DNA of 64,000 bases. Origin: Pseudovibrio sp. Ad37 (GTDB taxonomy: Bacteria > Pseudomonadota > Alphaproteobacteria > Rhizobiales > Stappiaceae). Below are positions 42,200-52,089 of the stretch, piece by piece. The stretch covers positions 1 through 64,000 of the forward strand of contig NZ_LMCF01000215.1 in assembly GCF_001623075.1 (NCBI RefSeq). Reading direction: 5' to 3'. The position numbers were made by a program, and so were the translations under genes. Each line of letters opens with the position of its first letter. The stretch's first letter is position 1. The notes under the pieces were generated by a model that ran no database searches, was not told the origin of the DNA, and was given only the letters and a program-made list of their open reading frames with translations.

Positions 42200-43654
42200 T
42201 TATTTGGACCAGAAATCAGGATCCAGAAGAATAAGAACCGTGAACAGTTCCAGACGCCCCAGCAACATCGCGGCGCACAAGATCCATTTCACCGGATCAG
42301 GCAGCGCCGCAAAGTTGCCAGATGGCCCGATCATGGTGCCAAGGCCCGGGCCAACGTTACCAACGGATGTCGCGGCGGCAGACACAGCGGTCACCAGATC
42401 CAGATGGAACAGGGACAGGATCAACGTCAGAATACCAACTGTACCGATGTAAACCACAAGGAACGCAAGAACGGAGAACGTCAGTTCTGGTGTCAGGTGC
42501 GTGTTACCATAGCTCACAGAGATCACGCGGTTAGGCCGCACCATCCGCCGCATATGCGCAATCACGGTTCCGAAGAACACAAGAAAACGGAAGACCTTGA
42601 TGCCGCCCGTTGTCGAGCCTGTACAGCCACCAACAAACTTGAGCAGGAACGCAAGACCGATCACCGGAGCTCCCCAAGCGGTGTAATCCCCCATGGCATA
42701 GCCAGTACCCGTCACCACAGAAATCACGTTAAACGCGGATTGCAGGATCGCACTACCAAAACTATCTGCATTGCCAGAAGTGCCGAGATAAATCGTCAGA
42801 GCAAGAGAAATCAAACCCACAAGCCACAGAAACGCACGTACCTGCGGATCCCGCCACAGCAACATCGGCTGACCGCGTAGCCCCTGAATGATCAACACGA
42901 ACGGCAGCGCGCCCACAATCATGAAAACAACTGCAATCCAGCCAGTCACCGGATTGGTGAAGTACCCAAAGGAATTGTCATGCGTAGAGTAACCACCCGT
43001 CGCAATTGTTGTGAGACCATGGTTGAACGCATCAAACATCGTCATGCCGGAGAACCAGTAAAGCACAATGCAAAGACTGGTCAGAAGCAGATACGTCAAA
43101 CTGATCAGGCGGATCAATTCAATGGAACGGCTGACAATCTTTTCGCTTTGATCGGAGCTTTCTGTCTGAAACAGCTGCATTCCACCAATGCGCAGAAACG
43201 GTAAAAGCACGATCGCCATAACAACGATGCCAACACCGCCCATCCACTGCATCAACGAACGCCACACAAGCAGCCCCGGCGGAAGTGAATCAAGACCCGT
43301 CAGCACAGTAGAGCCGGTGGTGGTGAATCCCGACACTGCCTCAAACGCAGCATCGACATACGCAATACCCAGCCACAAAAACGGCAGAGCTCCAAACGCG
43401 GGCAACGAGACCCAGCATAAAGTTGTCAGGATAAAGGTCTGGCGCGTATCCAACCCGTCACGCAGCGCACCACCCATGGCCACGATAAGCAACATGCCAA
43501 CCAGACCGGTAATTAACGCTGAAATAATAAAGGCTTGCCAGTCAGCATTACGCGACACAACATCCACAAATGCAGGGACGAGCATGGCAGCAGCGAGGCC
43601 GACATAAAGGTACCCAAGCACACTTAAAACCGGTCGTATGGAAACCAACATCAA
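42200..43654 (-). CDS. trkH: TrkH family potassium transport membrane subunit (copy 1)
   Basis: TrkH forms the K+ pore of the Trk system with TrkA; 484 residues and about ten hydrophobic segments. Filter-loop regions are visible: SGFTTTGSTVLTGLD near residue 110, TTIATGGYSTHD near 215-225, TGTGYAMGDYTAWG near 320 and TSVGNVGPGLG near 435. The start MMLVSIRPVLSVLGYL fits the family. A second trkH-like gene lies upstream on the same strand (43886-45328), giving a tandem pair. No trkA is in the window. Confidence 0.93.
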   Translation of the reverse strand: MMLVSIRPVLSVLGYLYVGLAAAMLVPAFVDVVSRNADWQAFIISALITGLVGMLLIVAMGGALRDGLDTRQTFILTTLCWVSLPAFGALPFLWLGIAYVDAAFEAVSGFTTTGSTVLTGLDSLPPGLLVWRSLMQWMGGVGIVVMAIVLLPFLRIGGMQLFQTESSDQSEKIVSRSIELIRLISLTYLLLTSLCIVLYWFSGMTMFDAFNHGLTTIATGGYSTHDNSFGYFTNPVTGWIAVVFMIVGALPFVLIIQGLRGQPMLLWRDPQVRAFLWLVGLISLALTIYLGTSGNADSFGSAILQSAFNVISVVTGTGYAMGDYTAWGAPVIGLAFLLKFVGGCTGSTTGGIKVFRFLVFFGTVIAHMRRMVRPNRVISVSYGNTHLTPELTFSVLAFLVVYIGTVGILTLILSLFHLDLVTAVSAAATSVGNVGPGLGTMIGPSGNFAALPDPVKWILCAAMLLGRLELFTVLILLDPDFWSK

Positions 43655-43885
43655 TCCGCCGATATAAAATCCAATTTAACCCGCCCGCTAGTCACATGTT
43701 GTCCCTTAACGGACGAGATTGGAACGGTATGCTCTCAAACATTTATGAAGCATTGGTTTTAGGCCACTTAGTGATATCTGGCAATTGAATTAATCGGGCA
43801 ACTACCTATTCACACAACAAGAATGAAACCGAACAGCCCAAACATGCTCAATGCACGAAATCCCTAGTCTTTCAGGGACGTAGCG

Positions 43886-45328
43886 TCAACGCCAGAATTG
43901 AGGGTTAAACAACACCAGCACCGTAAAAAGTTCCAATCTCCCCAGCAACATTGCCGCAGAAAGCACAATCTTCGCACTATTGGGGATGTCGGCAAAGTTT
44001 CCGATAGGGCCAACAACATCACCAAGTCCTGGGCCGACATTAGAAACCGCAGTCGTCGCTGCGCTCATAGCAGTCACTAGATCCAGACCAAGTCCACCAA
44101 GAATGACAGTAATCAGCCCCACAGTGGCCATATAGACCACTAAAAACGCAAGAACCGAAAACGCCAGTTCAGGTGTGATCTTTGTATCGCCATACCGGAC
44201 AGGAACCACCTGATCAGGCCGGATCATCTTATTCATGTACGCACGAACAGTGCCAAAGAACACGATAAACCGGAAAATCTTGATGCCACCACTGGTCGAG
44301 CCTGTACAGCCACCAATAAACGTCAGCATCAGGAAGAAGCCCATCATCGGCGGGCCCCACGCCGTGTAATCACCAAGTCCATAGCCCGTTGTGGTGATGA
44401 TTGAAATCACCACAAACAGCGCTTCAACCACAGCACGGCCAAACGTGAACTTGTTCTCAATACCGAGATACAGAGCAGTCAAACTGGAGAGGACAATGAT
44501 AAGTAAAATAAAGACCCGCGCCTGAGGGTCCTGCAGAAGTGCTTTCGGATTCTTGGTCAAGGATTTGATCAGTACAACGAACGGCAAACCCGAAGCCAGC
44601 ATAAAGACCACAGCCACCCATTCCGCGGCTGTACTCTCAAAATATGCAAAGGATGCATCGTGGGTGGAAAATCCACCAGAGGACAACGTCGTCATTGCAT
44701 GGTTCACCGCATCAAACAACGACATGCCAGAAAACACATAAAGGATCATGCAGGTCAGCGTCAGCATGATGTAGACGCCACCAATCAAGCGCGTCAGATC
44801 CGTCGCACGGGCAACAATCTTCTCTCCGCGATCAGAACTTTCTGTCCGAAACAGCTGCATCCCGCCAATACGCAACAAAGGCATGAGCAAGATCGCCATA
44901 ACGATGATGCCTACACCGCCGATCCACTGGGTCAATGAACGCCAGAACAACAAACCCGGAGGCATTCCATCCAGACCAATCAGAACCGTGGAACCTGTGG
45001 TCGTAAACCCAGACACGCTCTCAAAAAAAGCGTTCTCGAAACCGATCCCAAGGCTGAGAAAGGGCAGAGCGCCACAGACTGGCATCACAATCCAGGACGC
45101 TGTTGTCAACAAAAACGCCTGACGAATGGTGAGATGCTCAAGTTTGTAATTAGCAGTAGAAACAGCAAGCAGCAGGCCAAGCAAACCAACAAACAGAGAA
45201 GAGAGTGCAAACGCAATCCAGTCGGGATTGCTGAAGTAAATGTCCAGCAATGCAGGCGCCAGCATCAAAATGGCCAGCCCAACCAGAAAATATCCAAGCA
45301 CCCGTAATACGGGACCCACCAGTGCCAT
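43886..45328 (-). CDS. trkH: TrkH family potassium transport membrane subunit (copy 2)
   Basis: Paralogue of the gene at 42200-43654 with the same membrane plan and filter loops: SGFTTTGSTVLIGLDG, TTLSSGGFSTHD, TTTGYGLGDYTAWG and TAVSNVGPGLGD. I start it at ATG 45328 (MALVGPVLRVLGYFLVG), which aligns with its neighbour; in-frame starts at 45340 and 45391 exist. The copies differ at the second loop (SSGG here, ATGG in copy 1), which may change ion affinity or regulation. About 230 bases separate the genes, so separate promoters are possible. Confidence 0.92.
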   Translation of the reverse strand: MALVGPVLRVLGYFLVGLAILMLAPALLDIYFSNPDWIAFALSSLFVGLLGLLLAVSTANYKLEHLTIRQAFLLTTASWIVMPVCGALPFLSLGIGFENAFFESVSGFTTTGSTVLIGLDGMPPGLLFWRSLTQWIGGVGIIVMAILLMPLLRIGGMQLFRTESSDRGEKIVARATDLTRLIGGVYIMLTLTCMILYVFSGMSLFDAVNHAMTTLSSGGFSTHDASFAYFESTAAEWVAVVFMLASGLPFVVLIKSLTKNPKALLQDPQARVFILLIIVLSSLTALYLGIENKFTFGRAVVEALFVVISIITTTGYGLGDYTAWGPPMMGFFLMLTFIGGCTGSTSGGIKIFRFIVFFGTVRAYMNKMIRPDQVVPVRYGDTKITPELAFSVLAFLVVYMATVGLITVILGGLGLDLVTAMSAATTAVSNVGPGLGDVVGPIGNFADIPNSAKIVLSAAMLLGRLELFTVLVLFNPQFWR

Positions 45329-46328
45329 AATATCTCTCATTTCAAGATGGGCTTCGCCTCTGGCGAGTGCACCAACACGCTTTAATCTCAAATCCTACAG
45401 AAACTCGGTTAAACTTCTCAGCAAACAGACATAACAAATCGGTCCGATGATTTTTGAGGTTACTGGGAAGTGAAAATTTGAAGGCTCATGACGAGCCCGC
45501 AGATAAGTTCGGCAGGATGGATCGCCTATCTACGCCAAAAGTAGAGGTCAGCCAAGTTTTTTCTTATCCGGAATGTTCTCACTTCGGCAAAGTGCTTAGC
45601 CATCGCGGTACAATTTCACCGAGCGTATAGCCAACTTTGTGTCTGCAAAGTCCAACTTAAATTCGGAAAAACACTTGTATTACAAGTTCCCACAGCGCTG
45701 CGACAATACTACCTATAAGTCATTCTACCGCGACAGGATGTGATCCTCAGATCACGTTTTTCATTAGCCTTAACACCCGTTCAAAGTGAATTAATTTCAT
45801 TATACTGTTGTTTTAAATAAGACATTGCAACCTGAAATTTTACAGCACCTAAAAACAAGTCAAATCAACAAAATCAATTAGGTAGATCATATTGTCGCAG
45901 TTTTTCGCCTTATAGATTTCATCAATGACGCGATAGACTCATACGATTTTATTTAAGCTGCGTCCTTCTGCAAGTTCTCGCTGAACACCGTAAGCTTCCC
46001 TACGTCATTTTAGGTAGGGGCCTTTCGGAACTGAAGAACAGGGGAAGGGTATTCATGGTCTGAATTTGTGGTTTGCACGGTCTCTTGAAAAGACCTTGGA
46101 ACCCGGAAGGAAAGTTACAGCGAGTTTGAAGCCGCTGACGCAGTTGCACTTTAACATCTCCCATTAAGCTGCAACTCAAAACCCGAAAATCCTGACGGTT
46201 CCAACTTCTCCCAGCAAACCAGAAATCAAGGCCATGACGTGAGATGCCTTCATCAGCTTCGCTCACCAAGCAAGCACCATGAAGCCACACTCTCCTTTCT
46301 CCCGTCAGTTTTATGGAGAATGGCTGTT
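45329..46328. other. Long intergenic region and leader of the DUF3360 gene
   Basis: One kilobase without a convincing gene. It holds CTGCGACAATAC at 45698-45709 (also upstream of the OFA gene), a GTGATC/GATCAC palindrome with a short T run at 45740-45761, and the shared ATAGA element at 45912-45948. About 380 bases of possible untranslated leader follow to the start at 46329. A small minus-strand frame at 46000-46290 has no support. Confidence 0.45.
45912..45948 (+). promoter_or_regulatory. Shared LysR-type operator candidate (DUF3360 promoter)
   Basis: ATAGA at 45912-45916, a second ATAGA exactly 21 bases later at 45933-45937, then seven bases and GATT at 45945. The same spacing occurs at 48114 and 51125. 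ATC and GAT around the middle make a dyad typical of LysR sites. Confidence 0.65.
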
Positions 46329-47846
46329 ATGCTTCAGCAGACAGACAAGCACGAAGAATCCTATAGCGAGGCACACAAGCCTGCGAGTGAGTTCGAACAA
46401 CGGTCTGATTATCTGGACCACGAACTCCAGATCATGAAACCACGTCGTTGGAGTCTCAACCTGCCGGGCCGCGACTTCCGTTTTGAAATAGAAGATTTTG
46501 TTCCGGCAATTGCAGGAACAATCGGCATCTCTGTGATGTACTCTGCGGTTATGACTGCATGGGCAACTGGCCTCACAGCAAAATGGCCACACGTCAATCT
46601 TGGTGCAGAATGGATCATTGAAGTGGTCCGCGTTGAGATGCTCATCCCTGCCCTGCTCTTCTGCATCATCGGGTCTGGTTTCCTCAACCCACGCGCAAAC
46701 CTTGCAGGCAACCATGGTCCAATGATCCCACTCATTGGCTCTATTGCTCTTGCAGGCGCGCACCCTCTAGCACTAGCAGCACTCGTCTGTGTCTTCGGCT
46801 TGCTCCTCAGCTACTTTAAAGGCGGCTCTCGTCTGGTAAACCTGACAAGCCAGGGCGTTGCTGGCGGCTTGCTCGTGTTCCTTGGCTTCATGGGGGCAAA
46901 GGGGCAAATCACATCCCTCTTCAGCTGGGCTGGCGGTCTGCAGGCCAAGCATGACCTTGCTTACAGCCTCTCTTACGTCGCTCTGGCAATCTTTGCAGTC
47001 AACATCGTGCTCTACGCCTTCCTCGCCAAGGTCGGTAAGCGCTGGCTCGCAATTCCAGCTTGCTCCGTCGTCGCGGTTGTTCTGGCTCTCGCACTCGGCG
47101 CAGGTGTTGACCTTCAGTTCACCACAGCTCCTGGTCTGCCAAACATGAACCCATGGTACTGGTGGGGGTCTACTGAGACTGGCTGGCAGCTTGGCATCCC
47201 TAGCTTCAACCACTTCGTTGCATCTCTGCCTTGGGCAATTCTGGCAGTTGCAATGTGGTCCCCGGATTTCCTCGGCCACCGTATCTTCCAGGAACTCAAC
47301 TACCCAAAGAACACTGATAAAGTTCTGATGGATGTTGATGACACCATGACCGGCTGCTCCCTGCGTCAGTTCACCGGTACATTCTTCGGCGGTGGTAACA
47401 TCACATCTTCCTGGGGCACATATATGATCCCGGCAGCGATCGCAAAGCGTCCGATCCCTGCTGGCGCAATCCTGCTTGGCGCACTGTGCATCGTTATCGC
47501 AACCATCGGCTACCCAATGGACGTAGCAGTATGGCAGCCAGTGATGTCCTGTGCTCTTCTGGTTGGCGTGTTCTTACCACTTCTGGAAGCTGGCCTGCAG
47601 ATGGTGAAATCCAGCAACGACACCAATTCCGCTGGTATCTGTATATTCGCAGCCATCGTGACCAACCCTGTTCTGGCATGGGCAATCACCATGTTCCTCG
47701 ACAACAATGGTCTCATTGGTGACAAGGAACGTGCGGAACGCCTGAGCTTTGCAGACCGCATCATCATTCCAGCAGGTGCAGTGATCATCTGTACTCTGGC
47801 AATGGCTGCAGTTGGCATGCTTCCAGGTATTCCAGCTCTCCTGTAA
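46329..47846 (+). CDS. DUF3360 family membrane permease
   Basis: This 505-residue membrane protein matches the DUF3360 family, known mainly from Vibrio and other marine bacteria. It starts with a hydrophilic tail (HKPASEFEQRSDYLDHELQI) and NLPGRDFRFEIEDFVPA, then about a dozen hydrophobic segments with SGFLNPRANLAGNHGPMIPL, LPNMNPWYWWGSTETGW, WSPDFLGHRIF, GGGNITSSWGTY and a C-terminal GMLPGIPALL. The overall plan resembles NCS2/SulP-type anion or purine permeases, but its substrate is not established. ATG at 46329 lies ten bases after GGAG. Expression probably responds to the LysR gene at 50195. Confidence 0.9.
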   Translation: MLQQTDKHEESYSEAHKPASEFEQRSDYLDHELQIMKPRRWSLNLPGRDFRFEIEDFVPAIAGTIGISVMYSAVMTAWATGLTAKWPHVNLGAEWIIEVVRVEMLIPALLFCIIGSGFLNPRANLAGNHGPMIPLIGSIALAGAHPLALAALVCVFGLLLSYFKGGSRLVNLTSQGVAGGLLVFLGFMGAKGQITSLFSWAGGLQAKHDLAYSLSYVALAIFAVNIVLYAFLAKVGKRWLAIPACSVVAVVLALALGAGVDLQFTTAPGLPNMNPWYWWGSTETGWQLGIPSFNHFVASLPWAILAVAMWSPDFLGHRIFQELNYPKNTDKVLMDVDDTMTGCSLRQFTGTFFGGGNITSSWGTYMIPAAIAKRPIPAGAILLGALCIVIATIGYPMDVAVWQPVMSCALLVGVFLPLLEAGLQMVKSSNDTNSAGICIFAAIVTNPVLAWAITMFLDNNGLIGDKERAERLSFADRIIIPAGAVIICTLAMAAVGMLPGIPALL

Positions 47847-47866
47847 GCTGAACCGCACCACATTCC

Positions 47867-47898
47867 AAAAAGCGCATCGCCCAGCGGTGCGCTTTTTT
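47867..47898 (+). terminator. Terminator behind the DUF3360 gene
   Basis: AAAAAGCGCA pairs with TGCGCTTTTT, followed by further T. It separates the permease from the OFA transporter. Confidence 0.85.
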
Positions 47899-48339
47899 CG
47901 TTTCTGCAAGCACTGCGACAATACGCACCTGAGTAAAACTTGACGTCAGTAACACACAGTACGGATGACAAACTCACACCCATCTGGCATATTCGTAAGC
48001 ACCAAGCAGCGCTACTCATCTGATATTTCAAAATAAATCAGAGCGTGCAAAATTTTTCAATGCACCAGCCTCTGCTTTCGACCTTTCTCTTCCCTCCACA
48101 AACCCGCGCTGTAATAGATTACATCTATAACGCGATAGACGCTGGCGATTTCAACTCACCATGTGTTAGATGCAGACTCAACGTATGGATGCAGGCTTCC
48201 TCCCTCTCGCCTGCCTCCTAGGCGCATTCCCGAAATGGGGCTCGATTTTCGGAAAACAGAATGTAGTCGCAACAAAAGATCGAGGCAGTTTGCCGGGCGA
48301 GGCAATGCAAACTGCTTTGATTGCTCTAGGGGTTTGCTG
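47899..48339. other. Intergenic region upstream of the OFA transporter
   Basis: Contains CTGCGACAATAC at 47913-47924 and the shared ATAGA element at 48114-48150, then about 190 bases of leader. The open frame that extends back to 48163 has no ribosome binding site and is not part of the protein family. No other gene seen. Confidence 0.5.
48114..48150 (+). promoter_or_regulatory. Shared LysR-type operator candidate (OFA promoter)
   Basis: ATAGA at 48114-48118 and again at 48135-48139 (21-base phase), then seven bases and GATT at 48147. CTAT and ATAG flank AACGCG here, forming a LysR-like dyad. Confidence 0.7.
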
Positions 48340-50118
48340 ATGTTTAAAATACCAAGCTTTATGCTGAAAGACGCGATCGTAGCCAAGCCGGGCTTCAATC
48401 GTTGGCTCGTTCCACCGACTTCCATTGCAATTCACCTCTGCATCGGTTCTGCCTATGCATGGAGTATCTACAATCCGGCACTTGTCAGAGAAATCGGCGG
48501 CATAGCACCAGCAGCTGAAGATTGGTCTCTCAGCTCTGTGGTCTGGATCTTCTCAGTCGCAATTCTATTTCTTGGCCTGTCTGCCGCTGTTGCAGGCAAA
48601 TGGCTTGAGAAAGTTGGTCCACGCTGCGTTGGCACAACAGCTGCCTTCTGCTGGGGCGGTGGTTACATCATCGGCTCAATTGGCATCATGACGCACCAGC
48701 TCTGGCTGCTGTATCTGGGGTACGGTGTCATTGGTGGCTGTGGCCTCGGTCTTGGGTATGTTTCACCTGTCTCTACCCTGATCCGCTGGTATCCTGACCG
48801 CCGAGGTCTGGCAACCGGTATGGCCATTATGGGTTTTGGCGGCGGTGCAATCATCGCAGTTCCACTGAAAAGCTGGCTTCTGAACCTTTACGCCAAAGCG
48901 CCTGACTATCTTGGCCCACTCGCTGACGTGCAAACAACCGTAGAAAACGGCGTACGCTACGTACAGGTTGCAAGCCAAAAGCTGGAAGCCATCGTCGTAA
49001 GCGCATCTCAAGCAGAAGCAGCCTTTGACAGTGCCCAAGCAGGCGTATACCTCGCAGGCACAGGCAACACCGGCGCAGCATCAACCTTCCTCACACTGGG
49101 TATCGTCTACTTCTTCGTGATGATCCTGGCATCTTTCGCCTACCGCATTCCTGCACCAGGCTGGAAACCAGAAGGTTGGGAACCACCACAAGAAGATCCA
49201 GTCAAACAGGGTCTAATCACTCGCAACCACGTGCACATCGATACAGCTCTGCGTACACCGCAGTTCTACCAGCTCTGGATCGTGCTTTGCTTCAACGTGA
49301 CAGCTGGGATCGGTGTGATCTCCGTTTCCAAAACCATGATCTACGAGATCTTCGGCAACAGCATGCCAACCATCGTGGATGGAGCCTTCACCGCAACCTA
49401 CGTCTTGATGATCTCTGTCTTCAACGCCATGGGCCGCCTTGGTTGGTCCACTCTTTCTGACTATATTGGCCGCAAGAACACCTACACTGTATTCTTCGTG
49501 CTGGGCTCTTTTCTATACCTCTCCATTCCGTTCATCGCAGCTGAAGCAGGTGCTAGCCCCTCCGTGATGTGGCTGGTGATGTTCTACGCAGCCACCATGA
49601 CCATCTTCACCATGTATGGCGGTGGCTTCGCTACAATTCCCGCCTATCTGGCAGATATCTTCGGCACCAAATTCGTCGGCGGTATCCATGGTCGCCTGCT
49701 CACCGCATGGTCTGCAGCAGGTGTAGCTGGTCCGTTCCTCATCACATTCCTGCGCGAACGGTCTGTAAACACCAAAATCCATGAGCTTGCAGAAAAGGTT
49801 GATCCAGCCGTATTCCTTCAGACCTTCGGTGAAGGCAAGGAGAAACTGGCTGAGCTCATCGCAGCAAAATCCATCTCTGTCTCAAGACTGATGGAAGTGG
49901 CTCCGGAAGGCACAGTTGATCCAACTCCGAGCCTCTACAACAACACAATGTATGTGATGGCTGGTTTGCTCGTCGCGGCACTCGTCTCCAACCTTCTCAT
50001 GAAGCCAGTCCACCCGAAGTATCATATGGCTGAGGACGCACTGGGCGAAGGAGAAGCCACAACAACAAAACCGGCGGCATCTGGCAAACAAACATCTGCA
50101 CCAATGCCTGCTGAATAA
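48340..50118 (+). CDS. OFA-family MFS transporter (oxalate/formate antiporter type)
   Basis: This 592-residue major facilitator protein belongs to the OFA family. It shows FNRWLVPPTSIAIHLCIGSA, YAWSIYNPALVREIG and GKWLEKVGPRCVG near the start, RWYPDRRGLATGMAIMGFGG near residue 150 and GRLGWSTLSDYIGRKNTYTV in the second half, the MFS inter-helix motifs. A long hydrophilic insert (about 195-250) and a C-terminal tail of about 60 residues are unusual. OFA members move oxalate, formate, lactate or similar anions; the substrate here is unproven. ATG at 48340 follows AGGGG. The regulator at 50195 is adjacent. Confidence 0.88.
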   Translation: MFKIPSFMLKDAIVAKPGFNRWLVPPTSIAIHLCIGSAYAWSIYNPALVREIGGIAPAAEDWSLSSVVWIFSVAILFLGLSAAVAGKWLEKVGPRCVGTTAAFCWGGGYIIGSIGIMTHQLWLLYLGYGVIGGCGLGLGYVSPVSTLIRWYPDRRGLATGMAIMGFGGGAIIAVPLKSWLLNLYAKAPDYLGPLADVQTTVENGVRYVQVASQKLEAIVVSASQAEAAFDSAQAGVYLAGTGNTGAASTFLTLGIVYFFVMILASFAYRIPAPGWKPEGWEPPQEDPVKQGLITRNHVHIDTALRTPQFYQLWIVLCFNVTAGIGVISVSKTMIYEIFGNSMPTIVDGAFTATYVLMISVFNAMGRLGWSTLSDYIGRKNTYTVFFVLGSFLYLSIPFIAAEAGASPSVMWLVMFYAATMTIFTMYGGGFATIPAYLADIFGTKFVGGIHGRLLTAWSAAGVAGPFLITFLRERSVNTKIHELAEKVDPAVFLQTFGEGKEKLAELIAAKSISVSRLMEVAPEGTVDPTPSLYNNTMYVMAGLLVAALVSNLLMKPVHPKYHMAEDALGEGEATTTKPAASGKQTSAPMPAE

Positions 50119-50137
50119 AAAGCAAACCCAAACAACT

Positions 50138-50165
50138 AAGCCCGCGAACATCGCGGGCTTTTTTT
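50138..50165 (+). terminator. Terminator behind the OFA transporter
   Basis: AAGCCCGCGA pairs with TCGCGGGCTT around ACA, followed by TTTTT. Confidence 0.9.
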
Positions 50166-50194
50166 ATGAGCAACTCGAAAGCAATGCTACTTTG

Positions 50195-51097
50195 CTAATC
50201 AGTCTGCTCTGGTATCAGCGGCTTCTTATACTGAGCGGCGCAATCTGCTAGGGATGTGATAATCGCAGGCTCCAGCTCACGCTTTGTCATCACCATACCA
50301 ATACTGTGCGAAACAACTGGCTTAATCAGGGGTACGGAAACAATCCCTGCCCTAAGCGACAAGGCAGAAAACTCCGGCAAAATCGCGCAATACCCCGCAC
50401 GGATAAACCCGCCAAGCGACGGGATTGTCTCTGCCTCGATCTCGGGGTCCAACTCAACACCGAGGAAGCGAAGCGTGCTATCTACCATCAACCGATTTTG
50501 CAAGTTCGGCGAAAGCGCCACCATCGCCCCGGCATTCACAGCCGTCTCCCATTCCACTGCGTCTATCCCTTGCAGGCGATGCCCCGCAGGCATGAACAGA
50601 CGATAGTCTTCCTCATAAAGTGTGAAGCTGCTGTGCTTCTTTGCATCGCTGAATTGAGTGTACGTAATGCCCGCATCGATCTGATAATCCTCCAGAGCCT
50701 TATGGATTTCGTCATGGCTCATCAATTGGATCGTCGCATGTGCATGCGGGTGGCTCTTCTTCAAATCCAGAATAAGGGAGGCTGTCGCAACATCGGCAGA
50801 CGGAATAACGCCGATATTGACTTTGCCAAACACCTCAGCACTCTTGCCCGCAACCTCGTTCCGCAAACTGTTGCAGTCCGCAAGCACCTTCTTCGCCCAG
50901 ACAAGAATGCGCTCCCCTTCCACCGTAAGTCCATGAAACTTCTTGCCGCGCTCAATAATGGGAACGCCCAGCTCAATCTCCAACTGGCGAATTCGGCCCG
51001 ACAACGTTGGCTGCGTCACATTACAAGCCGCGGCAGCACGCGTAAAATGCCGCTCTTGAGCCAGTGTAACGAGGTATTGTAACTGCCGAATATCCAA
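50195..51097 (-). CDS. LysR-family transcriptional regulator
   Basis: This 300-residue LysR protein has a winged helix-turn-helix at residues 1-60 (MDIRQLQYLVTLAQERHFTR, CNVTQPTLSGRIRQLEIELG) and a periplasmic-binding-protein-like effector domain from about 90. The N-terminus closely resembles the LysR regulators found beside NAD-dependent formate dehydrogenase operons in alphaproteobacteria, which would fit an OFA (formate/oxalate) transporter next door. It is convergent with that transporter and carries a matching operator candidate at 51125-51157, 28 bases before its own start, so autoregulation is likely. Confidence 0.92.
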   Translation of the reverse strand: MDIRQLQYLVTLAQERHFTRAAAACNVTQPTLSGRIRQLEIELGVPIIERGKKFHGLTVEGERILVWAKKVLADCNSLRNEVAGKSAEVFGKVNIGVIPSADVATASLILDLKKSHPHAHATIQLMSHDEIHKALEDYQIDAGITYTQFSDAKKHSSFTLYEEDYRLFMPAGHRLQGIDAVEWETAVNAGAMVALSPNLQNRLMVDSTLRFLGVELDPEIEAETIPSLGGFIRAGYCAILPEFSALSLRAGIVSVPLIKPVVSHSIGMVMTKRELEPAIITSLADCAAQYKKPLIPEQTD

Positions 51098-51124
51098 GGA
51101 CGATCACCCTTCACACAACGCTTG

Positions 51125-51157
51125 ATAGAAACGCCCTATAACACAATAGAGCAATCA
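51125..51157. promoter_or_regulatory. Shared LysR-type operator candidate (own promoter)
   Basis: ATAGA at 51125-51129 and at 51146-51150, again exactly 21 bases apart, then seven bases and GAT. CTATAACACAATAG in the middle is a dyad close to the CTATAACGCGATAG of the OFA promoter. It lies 28-60 bases before the LysR start codon. Confidence 0.65.
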
Positions 51158-51345
51158 GATCAGAATGGGCACGGACACTAGCATCTGTTTTCTCAAAGAA
51201 AAGCAAAACAAATACGCTGCGTACTTACGCCACAGGAATATCAGAGTGACCTTTTCACAGGGTTTCCAGTGCGAACCATGACTTGGCCACATTGCCTCTC
51301 TTATCTGCCACTCTCAGTTTCCAGTGATTTGCAATCGGACCTTCC

Positions 51346-52089
51346 ATGGCAAAAATCATTTCGCGTCCACTCCTTTGGGCATTCGGCACAGCCTTTTTCG
51401 TTATGCTGGCAGTCTTCGCCACGTACTTACTCTTGCCCTATGATCTGCCCGGCTCCGCAAACCTCACAAAAGTTAAAGATGAGCGCCTGCCAGCCCTGCG
51501 CGCAGATCTGACCTTCAAAGGAATGACCTTGGGAAACCCCGTTTTCCTGCGTGTCTTTAAAGAAGAAAGCCGGCTGGAAGCATGGATCCGGTCTGGCAAA
51601 ACCTATCAACCCTACAAATCATGGGAGATTTGCAAATACTCTGGTGATCTGGGGCCAAAGCTGAAAGAAGGTGACGGTCAGTCTCCTGAGGGCTTTTACA
51701 ATGTGTCAGCTAGACAATTGAACCCGAACAGCAGATATCACCTCTCCTTCAATCTCGGTTTCCCGAACGCCTTTGACCAGTCACTGGACCGCACCGGTTC
51801 CTACCTGATGGTCCACGGCAACTGCCTCTCCATCGGCTGCTACGCCATGACCAACCAACATATCGAGGAAATTTACCTGCTCGTGGAAGCTGCCCTTCAG
51901 AACGGGCAAGGCACTGTCCCAGTCCACATCTTCCCCTTTGAGATGACAGAGGAAAACCTCAGCAAGCACGCCAACTCAAACTGGCTGAACTTCTGGCGCA
52001 ACCTCAAACAGGGCTACGACCTCTTCGAAGAAAACCGCATACCACCAGCAGTCTCCGCTCAAGAAGGCGAATACCAGTTTACTATCTAA
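51346..52089 (+). CDS. L,D-transpeptidase family protein (YkuD/YafK type)
   Basis: This 247-residue protein has a membrane anchor or signal (residues 8-30, LLWAFGTAFFVMLAVFATYL). The YkuD-type catalytic motif is HGNCLSIGCYAM with His157 and the nucleophile Cys165. SPEGFYNVSARQLNPNSRYH is the preceding YafK-like segment. Such enzymes crosslink peptidoglycan or attach or release Braun-type lipoprotein in the periplasm. It ends just before tRNA-Leu on the other strand. Confidence 0.93.
   Translation: MAKIISRPLLWAFGTAFFVMLAVFATYLLLPYDLPGSANLTKVKDERLPALRADLTFKGMTLGNPVFLRVFKEESRLEAWIRSGKTYQPYKSWEICKYSGDLGPKLKEGDGQSPEGFYNVSARQLNPNSRYHLSFNLGFPNAFDQSLDRTGSYLMVHGNCLSIGCYAMTNQHIEEIYLLVEAALQNGQGTVPVHIFPFEMTEENLSKHANSNWLNFWRNLKQGYDLFEENRIPPAVSAQEGEYQFTI

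What the first reader, a model, noticed from the sequence alone, without database searches (positions are those of the whole stretch)
45912..51157. One spaced operator in three promoters links the DUF3360 permease, the OFA transporter and the LysR gene
At 45912, 48114 and 51125 the same element recurs: ATAGA, exactly 16 bases, ATAGA, exactly 7 bases, GAT. The conserved 21-base phase equals two DNA turns. The core reads ATCAATGACGCGATAG, ATCTATAACGCGATAG and CCCTATAACACAATAG. The three sites lie upstream of the permease, upstream of the OFA gene, and 28 bases before the LysR start. Three matches with identical spacing are very unlikely by chance. The likely reading is a LysR regulon that coordinates two unrelated transporters, perhaps for formate, oxalate or a related anion. 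I am not aware of a described DUF3360-OFA-LysR system.
Basis: partly seen in the sequence, partly recalled or inferred. Interest (0 to 1): 0.75.

Follow-up and report, generated by a model that had tools for sequence, protein, structure and literature searches.

The report
Formate-sensor operator recruited to transporters
In the marine bacterium Pseudovibrio, one regulator most likely controls two very different membrane transporters through a DNA switch that related bacteria use at their formate-burning genes, and gene neighbourhoods suggest that one transporter, from a family of unknown function, moves formate like the textbook channel FocA.

Summary
The element is real: three exact copies in the window, 0.02 expected at up to one mismatch, and no other exact copy of the slightly looser pattern in the 5.88 Mb Pseudovibrio genome. 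It is a LysR-type tetramer site, ATAG-N7-CTAT-N6-ATAG-N8-GAT. It stands before DUF3360 in 10 of 10 genomes with the LysR ortholog, before the OFA-like gene in 12 of 12 with the LysR or a divergent homologue, and beside lysR in 8 of 10. It is absent in three genomes that keep DUF3360 without LysR. The same site lies between lysR and fdsG (formate dehydrogenase) in 55 of 56 fds-linked relatives (12 or more of 15 positions; backwards control 1 of 56). So it is an FdsR-type operator moved to transporters; FdsR of Cupriavidus is formate-inducible (PMC7057948, passages). FocA fills DUF3360's slot in two genomes. Close DUF3360 homologues lie directly before pflB in 40 of 40 loci of one family, where E. 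coli has focA. The model is UraA/SLC26-like. Oxalate is unlikely. Binding, ligand and substrates are inferred. The third site also faces a divergent ldtF/dpaA-like gene.

The parts
45912..45947 (+). Operator 1 (ATAG-N7-CaAT-N6-ATAG-N8-GAT) upstream of the DUF3360 gene
   Evidence: present in 10 of 10 genomes with the LysR ortholog
45948..46083 (+). Conserved leader between operator 1 and the DUF3360 gene, role unknown
   Evidence: 88% mean column identity over a slightly longer stretch in 10 genomes; among fetched loci blastn matched only operator-bearing ones; no strong RNA fold, no Rfam match there at E up to 1
46329..47846 (+). DUF3360 (PF11840) membrane protein, candidate formate transporter
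   Evidence: Pfam 934.5 bits; pflB linkage of close homologues; FocA in the same slot in two relatives; UraA/SLC26-like fold
47867..47897 (+). Terminator-like hairpin after the DUF3360 gene
   Evidence: pattern match only
48114..48149 (+). Operator 2 upstream of the OFA-like gene
   Evidence: best-conserved 26-base window of its intergenic region (rank 1 of 304); present in 12 of 12 genomes with the LysR or its divergent homologue
48340..50118 (+). OFA-like MFS monocarboxylate transporter
   Evidence: MFS_1; nearest curated models SfMCT L-lactate transporter and 2A0111, both under cut-off; PDB relatives 6g9x and 8hpj
50138..50160 (+). Terminator-like hairpin after the OFA-like gene
   Evidence: pattern match only
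50195..51097 (-). LysR-type regulator of the FdsR kind (TTG start)
   Evidence: HTH_1 and LysR_substrate; kin outside the genus mostly beside fdsGBA, with the same operator there
51125..51160 (+). Operator 3 between lysR and the divergent ldtF/dpaA-like gene
   Evidence: present in 8 of 10 genomes with the LysR ortholog
51346..52089 (+). Divergent LdtF/DpaA/YafK-like gene, possible additional target of operator 3
   Evidence: NF040599 263.4 bits, under its 365-bit cut-off; YkuD domain above Pfam cut-off; orientation and 186-bp distance

Best explanation
The three elements are binding sites of the LysR-type regulator at 50195-51097, and they are the same kind of operator that its fds-linked kin (FdsR) have in front of formate dehydrogenase. 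Each site has four half-sites spaced 11, 10 and 11-12 bases on one face of the helix: a strong inverted repeat (ATAG-N7-CTAT) and a weaker pair (ATAG-N8-GAT). A LysR tetramer bound there, given its inducer (most likely formate), activates the DUF3360 gene and the OFA-like gene and limits lysR itself. The two products carry formate, or formate and a related fermentation acid, across the inner membrane; DUF3360 does the job of the FocA channel with a different, UraA/SLC26-like fold. Shown computationally: the sites, their conservation, their absence where LysR is absent, the same operator at fds promoters of relatives, the FocA/DUF3360 slot swap and the pflB linkage. Inferred: binding, ligand, sign of regulation and substrate.
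For: Three exact sites in the genome, all at this locus. A 51-position model over 16 genomes finds matches under E 1e-4 only at this locus. Sites are present in all 12 genomes with the LysR or its homologue and not in 3 genomes that keep DUF3360 but lack LysR and the OFA-like gene. In 73 non-Pseudovibrio loci of LysR relatives, matches of 12 or more of 15 number 96 in 42 kb of promoter zones and 8 in 1.06 Mb elsewhere; 55 of 56 fds loci have one between lysR and fdsG or upstream of fdsG, against 1 of 56 for the pattern read backwards. The Pseudovibrio-trained model R1 gives 9 matches under E 1 in 68 fetched loci, all at lysR-fdsG gaps, best 1.2e-6. FdsR of Cupriavidus necator is formate-inducible (PMC7057948, passages). 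LysR ortholog and FdsA-type dehydrogenase occur in the same 10 of 16 genomes. FocA takes the DUF3360 slot in G020 and G026. DUF3360 lies directly upstream of pflB in 40 of 40 newly fetched loci of one family, the place of focA in E. coli. Formate channels are known to be linked to pfl or fdh genes (PMC5525234, passages). All 16 genomes have pflB, and Pseudovibrio makes formate in mixed-acid fermentation (PMC3806328, passages).
Against: No binding, expression or transport data. The genome's own fds operon has another LysR (31% identical) and no clear operator (best 11 of 15 in the gap), so the window LysR probably does not control formate oxidation here. The MFS protein is closer to an L-lactate transporter model than to oxalate/formate models. 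In the 13 Pseudovibrio genomes with DUF3360 it lies on another contig than pflB or more than 0.7 Mb away. One close homologue (L209, 72%) is not beside pflB, nor are 11 distant ones (50-57%), so the family may not be uniform. The lysR site is missing in G014, G021, G020 and G026; no operator is seen before focA in G020. Marivibrio pairs an OFA-like gene with an FdsR-like LysR but has no operator there (best 10 of 15). The tree does not nest the Pseudovibrio regulators inside the fds-linked ones. Genus-level co-occurrences are few independent events. In PMC7057948 the formate-controlled promoter showed no significant induction in one set of constructs (passage).
Confidence: 0.67

Rival explanations
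1. The same LysR regulon, but for another monocarboxylate (L-lactate or pyruvate, perhaps bicarbonate) or for fermentation acids in general; formate is not the ligand, or not the only substrate.
For: Nearest curated model of the MFS protein is the L-lactate transporter SfMCT (312.8 bits, cut-off 320); the Marivibrio homologue passes it (323.2). Pseudovibrio makes lactate as well as formate (PMC3806328). SLC26-like folds hold several anions (one search lists chloride, bicarbonate, sulfate and oxalate complexes).
Against: The same operator at fds promoters of the LysR's kin, FocA in the DUF3360 slot and pflB linkage all point to formate.
Confidence: 0.2
2. The third operator mainly serves the divergent ldtF/dpaA-like gene, or both that gene and lysR, so the regulon reaches cell-wall remodelling.
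For: In the usual LysR layout (recalled) the strong repeat is next to lysR and the weak half faces the divergent target; site 3 fits this, 186 bp before 51346.
Against: G021 keeps the ldtF-like gene but has no site there (L129); a cell-wall amidase has no obvious link to formate.
Confidence: 0.3
3. The element is the site of another regulator (for example OxyR, whose site is built of ATAGnt repeats) and lysR is only a neighbour.
For: OxyR recognises four ATAGnt repeats in contiguous major grooves (PMC5002191 passages); the window LysR resembles OxyR (4x6g).
Against: Significant sites occur only at this locus and only in genomes that have this LysR, and again beside lysR-fdsG of its relatives in other genera.
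Confidence: 0.04

Closest known systems
FdsR (Cupriavidus necator; fdsR of Methylosinus) and the fds-linked LysR regulators of Alphaproteobacteria
   Same: Closest kin found by sequence and, computed here, the same operator layout; formate context
   Different: Those sit at fds genes; this one sits with two transporters, with no clear site at fds in its own genome
OxyR and CynR operators
   Same: Repeats of ATAGnt (OxyR) or ATAA-n7-TTAT (CynR), bound by two dimers (PMC5002191 passages)
   Different: Other regulators and genes
focA-pflB operon and FNT formate channels
   Same: DUF3360 takes the focA position before pflB and alternates with focA in the Pseudovibrio locus
   Different: DUF3360 is not an FNT by sequence and its model has another fold
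SfMCT L-lactate transporter and OxlT oxalate:formate antiporter
   Same: PDB relatives of the MFS protein (6g9x, 8hpj)
   Different: 592 residues against 420 and 427, with an extra segment around residues 182-249 in the alignment; below curated cut-offs
UraA/NAT and SLC26 transporters
   Same: Best fold matches of the DUF3360 model (7tak, 8opq, 5da0)
   Different: No PDB chain matched by a DUF3360 profile at E up to 1; query TM-scores 0.38-0.57 in the 50 rows listed

Membership tests
LysR-type regulators | N-terminal HTH_1 and C-terminal LysR substrate domain | tested here: met
LysR-type operator | Inverted repeat with T-N11-A core plus a second, weaker half | tested here: met
   T-N11-A in all three sites; arms ATAG/CTAT perfect in sites 2 and 3, CAAT in site 1; consensus
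LysR-type operator | Bound by the LysR protein | not testable with these tools
   needs gel shift or footprint
FdsR | Gene beside the fds operon | tested here: not met
   fds is on contig C168 with its own LysR
FdsR | Operator shared with fds promoters of fds-linked relatives | tested here: met
   55 of 56 fds loci at 12 or more of 15 positions, backwards control 1 of 56; R1 hits
FdsR | Nested among fds-linked regulators in a tree | tested here: inconclusive
   the next wider starred set has 9 Pseudovibrio rows, 5 fds-linked rows and 3 others, of which 2 are distant LysR of the same genome; long branches
FdsR | Responds to formate | not testable with these tools
   reported for C. necator FdsR (PMC7057948, passages)
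FNT/FocA | PF01226 domain in the DUF3360 protein | tested here: not met
   only DUF3360 found
Formate transporter by function (DUF3360) | Genomic linkage to pfl or a swap with focA | tested here: met
   40 of 40 loci before pflB; FocA in the slot in 2 genomes; but no pflB linkage in Pseudovibrio itself
Formate transporter by function (DUF3360) | Moves formate | not testable with these tools
   transport assay needed
OFA family (TIGR00890, TIGR04259) | Score above curated cut-off | tested here: not met
   167.7 of 374.85 and 115 of 335 bits
L-lactate MFS transporter (NF049980) | Score above curated cut-off | tested here: not met
   312.8 of 320 bits
UraA/SLC26-like fold (DUF3360) | Fold match of a confident model | tested here: met
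   pLDDT 83, pTM 0.82; best Foldseek E 8.2e-8, TM 0.57

The most novel reading that the evidence does not exclude
DUF3360 (PF11840) is a new, non-FNT family of formate transporters with a UraA/SLC26-like fold, the working counterpart of FocA beside pflB throughout the family surveyed here (probably Vibrionaceae). In Pseudovibrio an FdsR-type formate sensor and its operator were moved from formate dehydrogenase to control this transporter together with an MFS carboxylate carrier.
Probability: 0.6. Interest if true: 0.75.

Novelty: new variant of a known kind. Interest (0 to 1): 0.63.

Why it matters
A protein family with no assigned function gets a specific, cheap-to-test one: formate transport beside pyruvate formate-lyase. 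The work also gives an operator consensus for FdsR-type regulators across many Alphaproteobacteria (ATnG-N7-CnAT-N6-ATnG-N7-CnAT) and a case in which that sensor-operator pair moved from formate oxidation to transport.

Tried and rejected
Oxalate: TIGR03254 (oxc) is above its cut-off in 0 of 16 Pseudovibrio genomes.

A wider regulon in Pseudovibrio: R1 (51 positions, built from 21 sites of nine genomes, so matches at this locus are partly by construction) gave matches under E 1e-4 only at this locus; the best elsewhere has E 0.216. Only 150 of 229-678 first-look candidates per genome were scored, so weak sites could be missed.

The operator at fds in Pseudovibrio: none at 12 or more of 15 in L139-L149; best 11 in the L139 gap. 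L140-L149 hold little beyond fdsA, so only L139 tests the promoter.

A mistake I corrected: I first took the matches in fds-linked loci (104 at 12 or more in 1.10 Mb) for background. Rechecking their positions showed that 96 lie in the promoter zones; I raised the confidence for this reason (0.6 to 0.67, novel case 0.55 to 0.6). The pattern is nearly its own reverse complement, so many sites count twice in the 96.

A riboswitch in the DUF3360 leader: no Rfam match there, fold z-scores -1.61 to 0.51 in 6 sequences, 2 of 30 pairs with both sides changed. Not supported.

Naming the DUF3360-pflB family f53: searches of plasmid and phage records gave no name; that it is Vibrionaceae is my inference.

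Literature: DUF3360 in 0 papers, PF11840 in none of the 3 papers found. I had a vague, unverified recollection of the name FocX for a vibrio formate carrier; the search listed 10 papers, by titles and abstracts on other matters, chiefly a UPEC regulator. The library lacks most subscription papers and all preprints, so prior work cannot be excluded. Oh and Bowien 1999 on FdsR was seen only as a reference title, so I could not compare its FdsR sites.
Full report
Observation. ATAGA-N16-ATAGA-N7-GAT is present exactly at 45912, 48114 and 51125, all on the + strand; shuffles of the window give 0.02 matches at up to one mismatch. In the 5,875,058-base genome the looser ATAG-N17-ATAG-N8-GAT has three exact matches, these three; with one mismatch allowed there are 71 hits against 53 for the pattern read backwards. 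Confirmed, and not chance.

What the element is. Aligning 21 copies from nine genomes gives ATAGATTnCATCTATAACnCnATAGACTCnTnCGAT. Half-sites sit at offsets 0, 11, 21 and about 32, on one face of the helix. The first pair (ATAG-N7-CTAT) is a T-N11-A inverted repeat, the LysR-type box; the second pair is weaker. OxyR (four ATAGnt repeats) and CynR (ATAA-n7-TTAT) sites have a similar design (PMC5002191, passages).

Conservation and absence. The genus has 16 genomes held. Ten have the LysR ortholog (84-100% identity) and two a divergent homologue (42-48%; E at most 1e-40). The OFA-like gene occurs in the same 12 (E at most 1e-30). DUF3360 occurs in 13: the ten plus G016, G018 and G027. By direct scan and by profile, the operator stands before DUF3360 in 10 of 10 genomes with the LysR ortholog, before the OFA-like gene in 12 of 12, and beside lysR in 8 of 10 (not G014, G021; nor in G020, G026). 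G016, G018 and G027 have none near DUF3360 (G016: two matches of 12 of 15 more than 2 kb away, and best profile E 0.44; G018 and G027: no match). In the OFA-like promoter the operator is the best-conserved 26-base window (rank 1 of 304); it ranks 137 of 494 for DUF3360, where the leader is as conserved, and 14 of 194 for lysR.

The operator is an FdsR-type operator. A scan of genome contigs kept the best 80 of 146 confirmed relatives of the LysR. Outside Pseudovibrio, 56 of 72 lie in one locus (up to 8 kb flanks) with fdsG, fdsB or fdsA of formate dehydrogenase at over 40% identity, mostly directly downstream (the truncated L097 left out). Scoring the 15 fixed positions over 73 loci (72 plus L097) gives 96 matches of 12 or more in 42,173 bases of promoter zones (before lysR, and the lysR-fdsG gap or the stretch before fdsG) and 8 in 1,061,488 bases elsewhere. 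Of 56 fds loci, 55 have a match of 12 or more between lysR and fdsG or just upstream of fdsG (24 at 12, 18 at 13, 12 at 14, 1 at 15); the pattern read backwards reaches 12 in 1 of 56. The consensus is ATnG-N7-CnAT-N6-ATnG-N7-CnAT. Independently, the model built only from Pseudovibrio sites gives 9 matches under E 1 in 68 loci, all in lysR-fdsG gaps (best 1.2e-6, L054). This ties regulator and operator together across genera and ties both to formate.

The regulator. Methylosinus names the fds-linked gene fdsR (PMC3615186, table passage). FdsR of Cupriavidus necator gives formate-inducible expression, Km 130 uM, 4.5-fold (PMC7057948, passages), although in one set of constructs the formate promoter was not significantly induced. 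The tree neither nests nor excludes the Pseudovibrio regulators: the next wider starred set has 9 of them, 5 fds-linked rows and 3 others, two of those being distant LysR of the window genome. The window genome has an fds operon elsewhere with its own LysR, 31% identical, and no clear operator. FdsA-type dehydrogenases above cut-off occur in exactly the ten genomes with the LysR ortholog, but this may be one clade.

DUF3360. First, G020 and G026 lack DUF3360, and between the TrkH genes and the OFA-like gene they carry a FocA that passes TIGR04060 (376 and 371 bits, cut-off 290), though not the narrower PRK10805. In G026 an ATAGATTATATCTAT repeat lies upstream of it (E 0.02); none is seen in G020. 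Second, DUF3360 homologues at 69-76% identity occur in one family (f53, unnamed; I take it for Vibrionaceae; 61 genomes searched, 46 with a match at any identity). All 40 newly fetched loci have pflB directly downstream on the same strand, 137-370 bp away. Of six further loci at 70-74%, five do (L205-L208, L210, not L209). None of 11 loci at 50-57% does, nor do L134-L136. A broken copy (G519) and a 61% copy (G493) were not examined. PflB and PflA pass TIGR01255 and TIGR02493 (one protein each). In E. coli this is the place of focA (annotated region), and FNT channels are assigned by such linkage (PMC5525234, passages). Third, the AlphaFold2 model (pLDDT 83, pTM 0.82) matches UraA/NAT and SLC26 anion transporters (best E 8.2e-8, TM 0.57). 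In Vibrio cholerae VC1866 is called PFL (or PFL-activating enzyme; PMC2714520, passages) and VC1865 is a hypothetical gene repressed 9.6-fold by the sRNA VqmR (PMC6451090, passages); that VC1865 is DUF3360 is my inference.

The MFS protein. It is related to SfMCT and OxlT (6g9x, 8hpj) but under the curated cut-offs, nearest to the L-lactate model. Its substrate could be formate, lactate or both. Oxalate is unlikely. All 16 genomes have pflB; [quoted passage not shown] Six of the ten LysR genomes have no FNT transporter (G013, G015, G017, G021, G023, G025).

Mechanism. Terminator-like hairpins after DUF3360 and after the OFA-like gene (pattern matches) suggest separate units, each with its own operator. 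The likely mechanism is activation by an inducer-bound LysR tetramer at the two transporter promoters. At site 3 the strong repeat is next to lysR and the weak half faces the divergent ldtF/dpaA-like gene 186 bp on. Autorepression and activation of that gene are both possible; G021 keeps the gene without the site.

Verdict. Regulon and operator: well supported by comparison, binding untested. Formate: probable. DUF3360 as a FocA counterpart: probable and, in the open library searched, not found described; subscription papers and preprints were not searchable.

Noticed in passing
45948-46083: The stretch between operator 1 and the DUF3360 gene is highly conserved in the 10 genomes with the LysR ortholog and, among fetched loci, was matched only at operator-bearing ones; no strong RNA fold or Rfam match.
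   Followed up: partly
51346-52089: An LdtF/DpaA-like gene lies divergent to lysR and is faced by the third operator.
   Followed up: partly
L028-L096, lysR-fdsG gaps: A shared operator consensus ATnG-N7-CnAT-N6-ATnG-N7-CnAT precedes fdsG in 55 of 56 fds loci, a candidate FdsR operator across many Alphaproteobacteria and one Salinisphaera.
   Followed up: yes
L135 and L136 (G018, G027): LysR-less Pseudovibrio genomes carry DUF3360 about 3 kb from a YjjW-type activase and YjjI-type glycyl radical enzyme, with a P-type ATPase between.
   Followed up: partly
L065:5989-8885: Marivibrio halodurans has an OFA-like gene (67%) directly before an FdsR-like regulator (42%), without the operator.
   Followed up: partly
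L210 (G375): FocA and DUF3360 lie side by side, divergent, next to pflB, so the two can coexist.
   Followed up: no
L211-L221 and L297: A second DUF3360 group (about 50-57% identity) occurs away from pflB, for example in Pseudoalteromonas; its role is unknown.
   Followed up: no
42200-45391: Two adjacent TrkH-type potassium uptake genes lie upstream of DUF3360 and also flank the FocA version of the locus.
   Followed up: no
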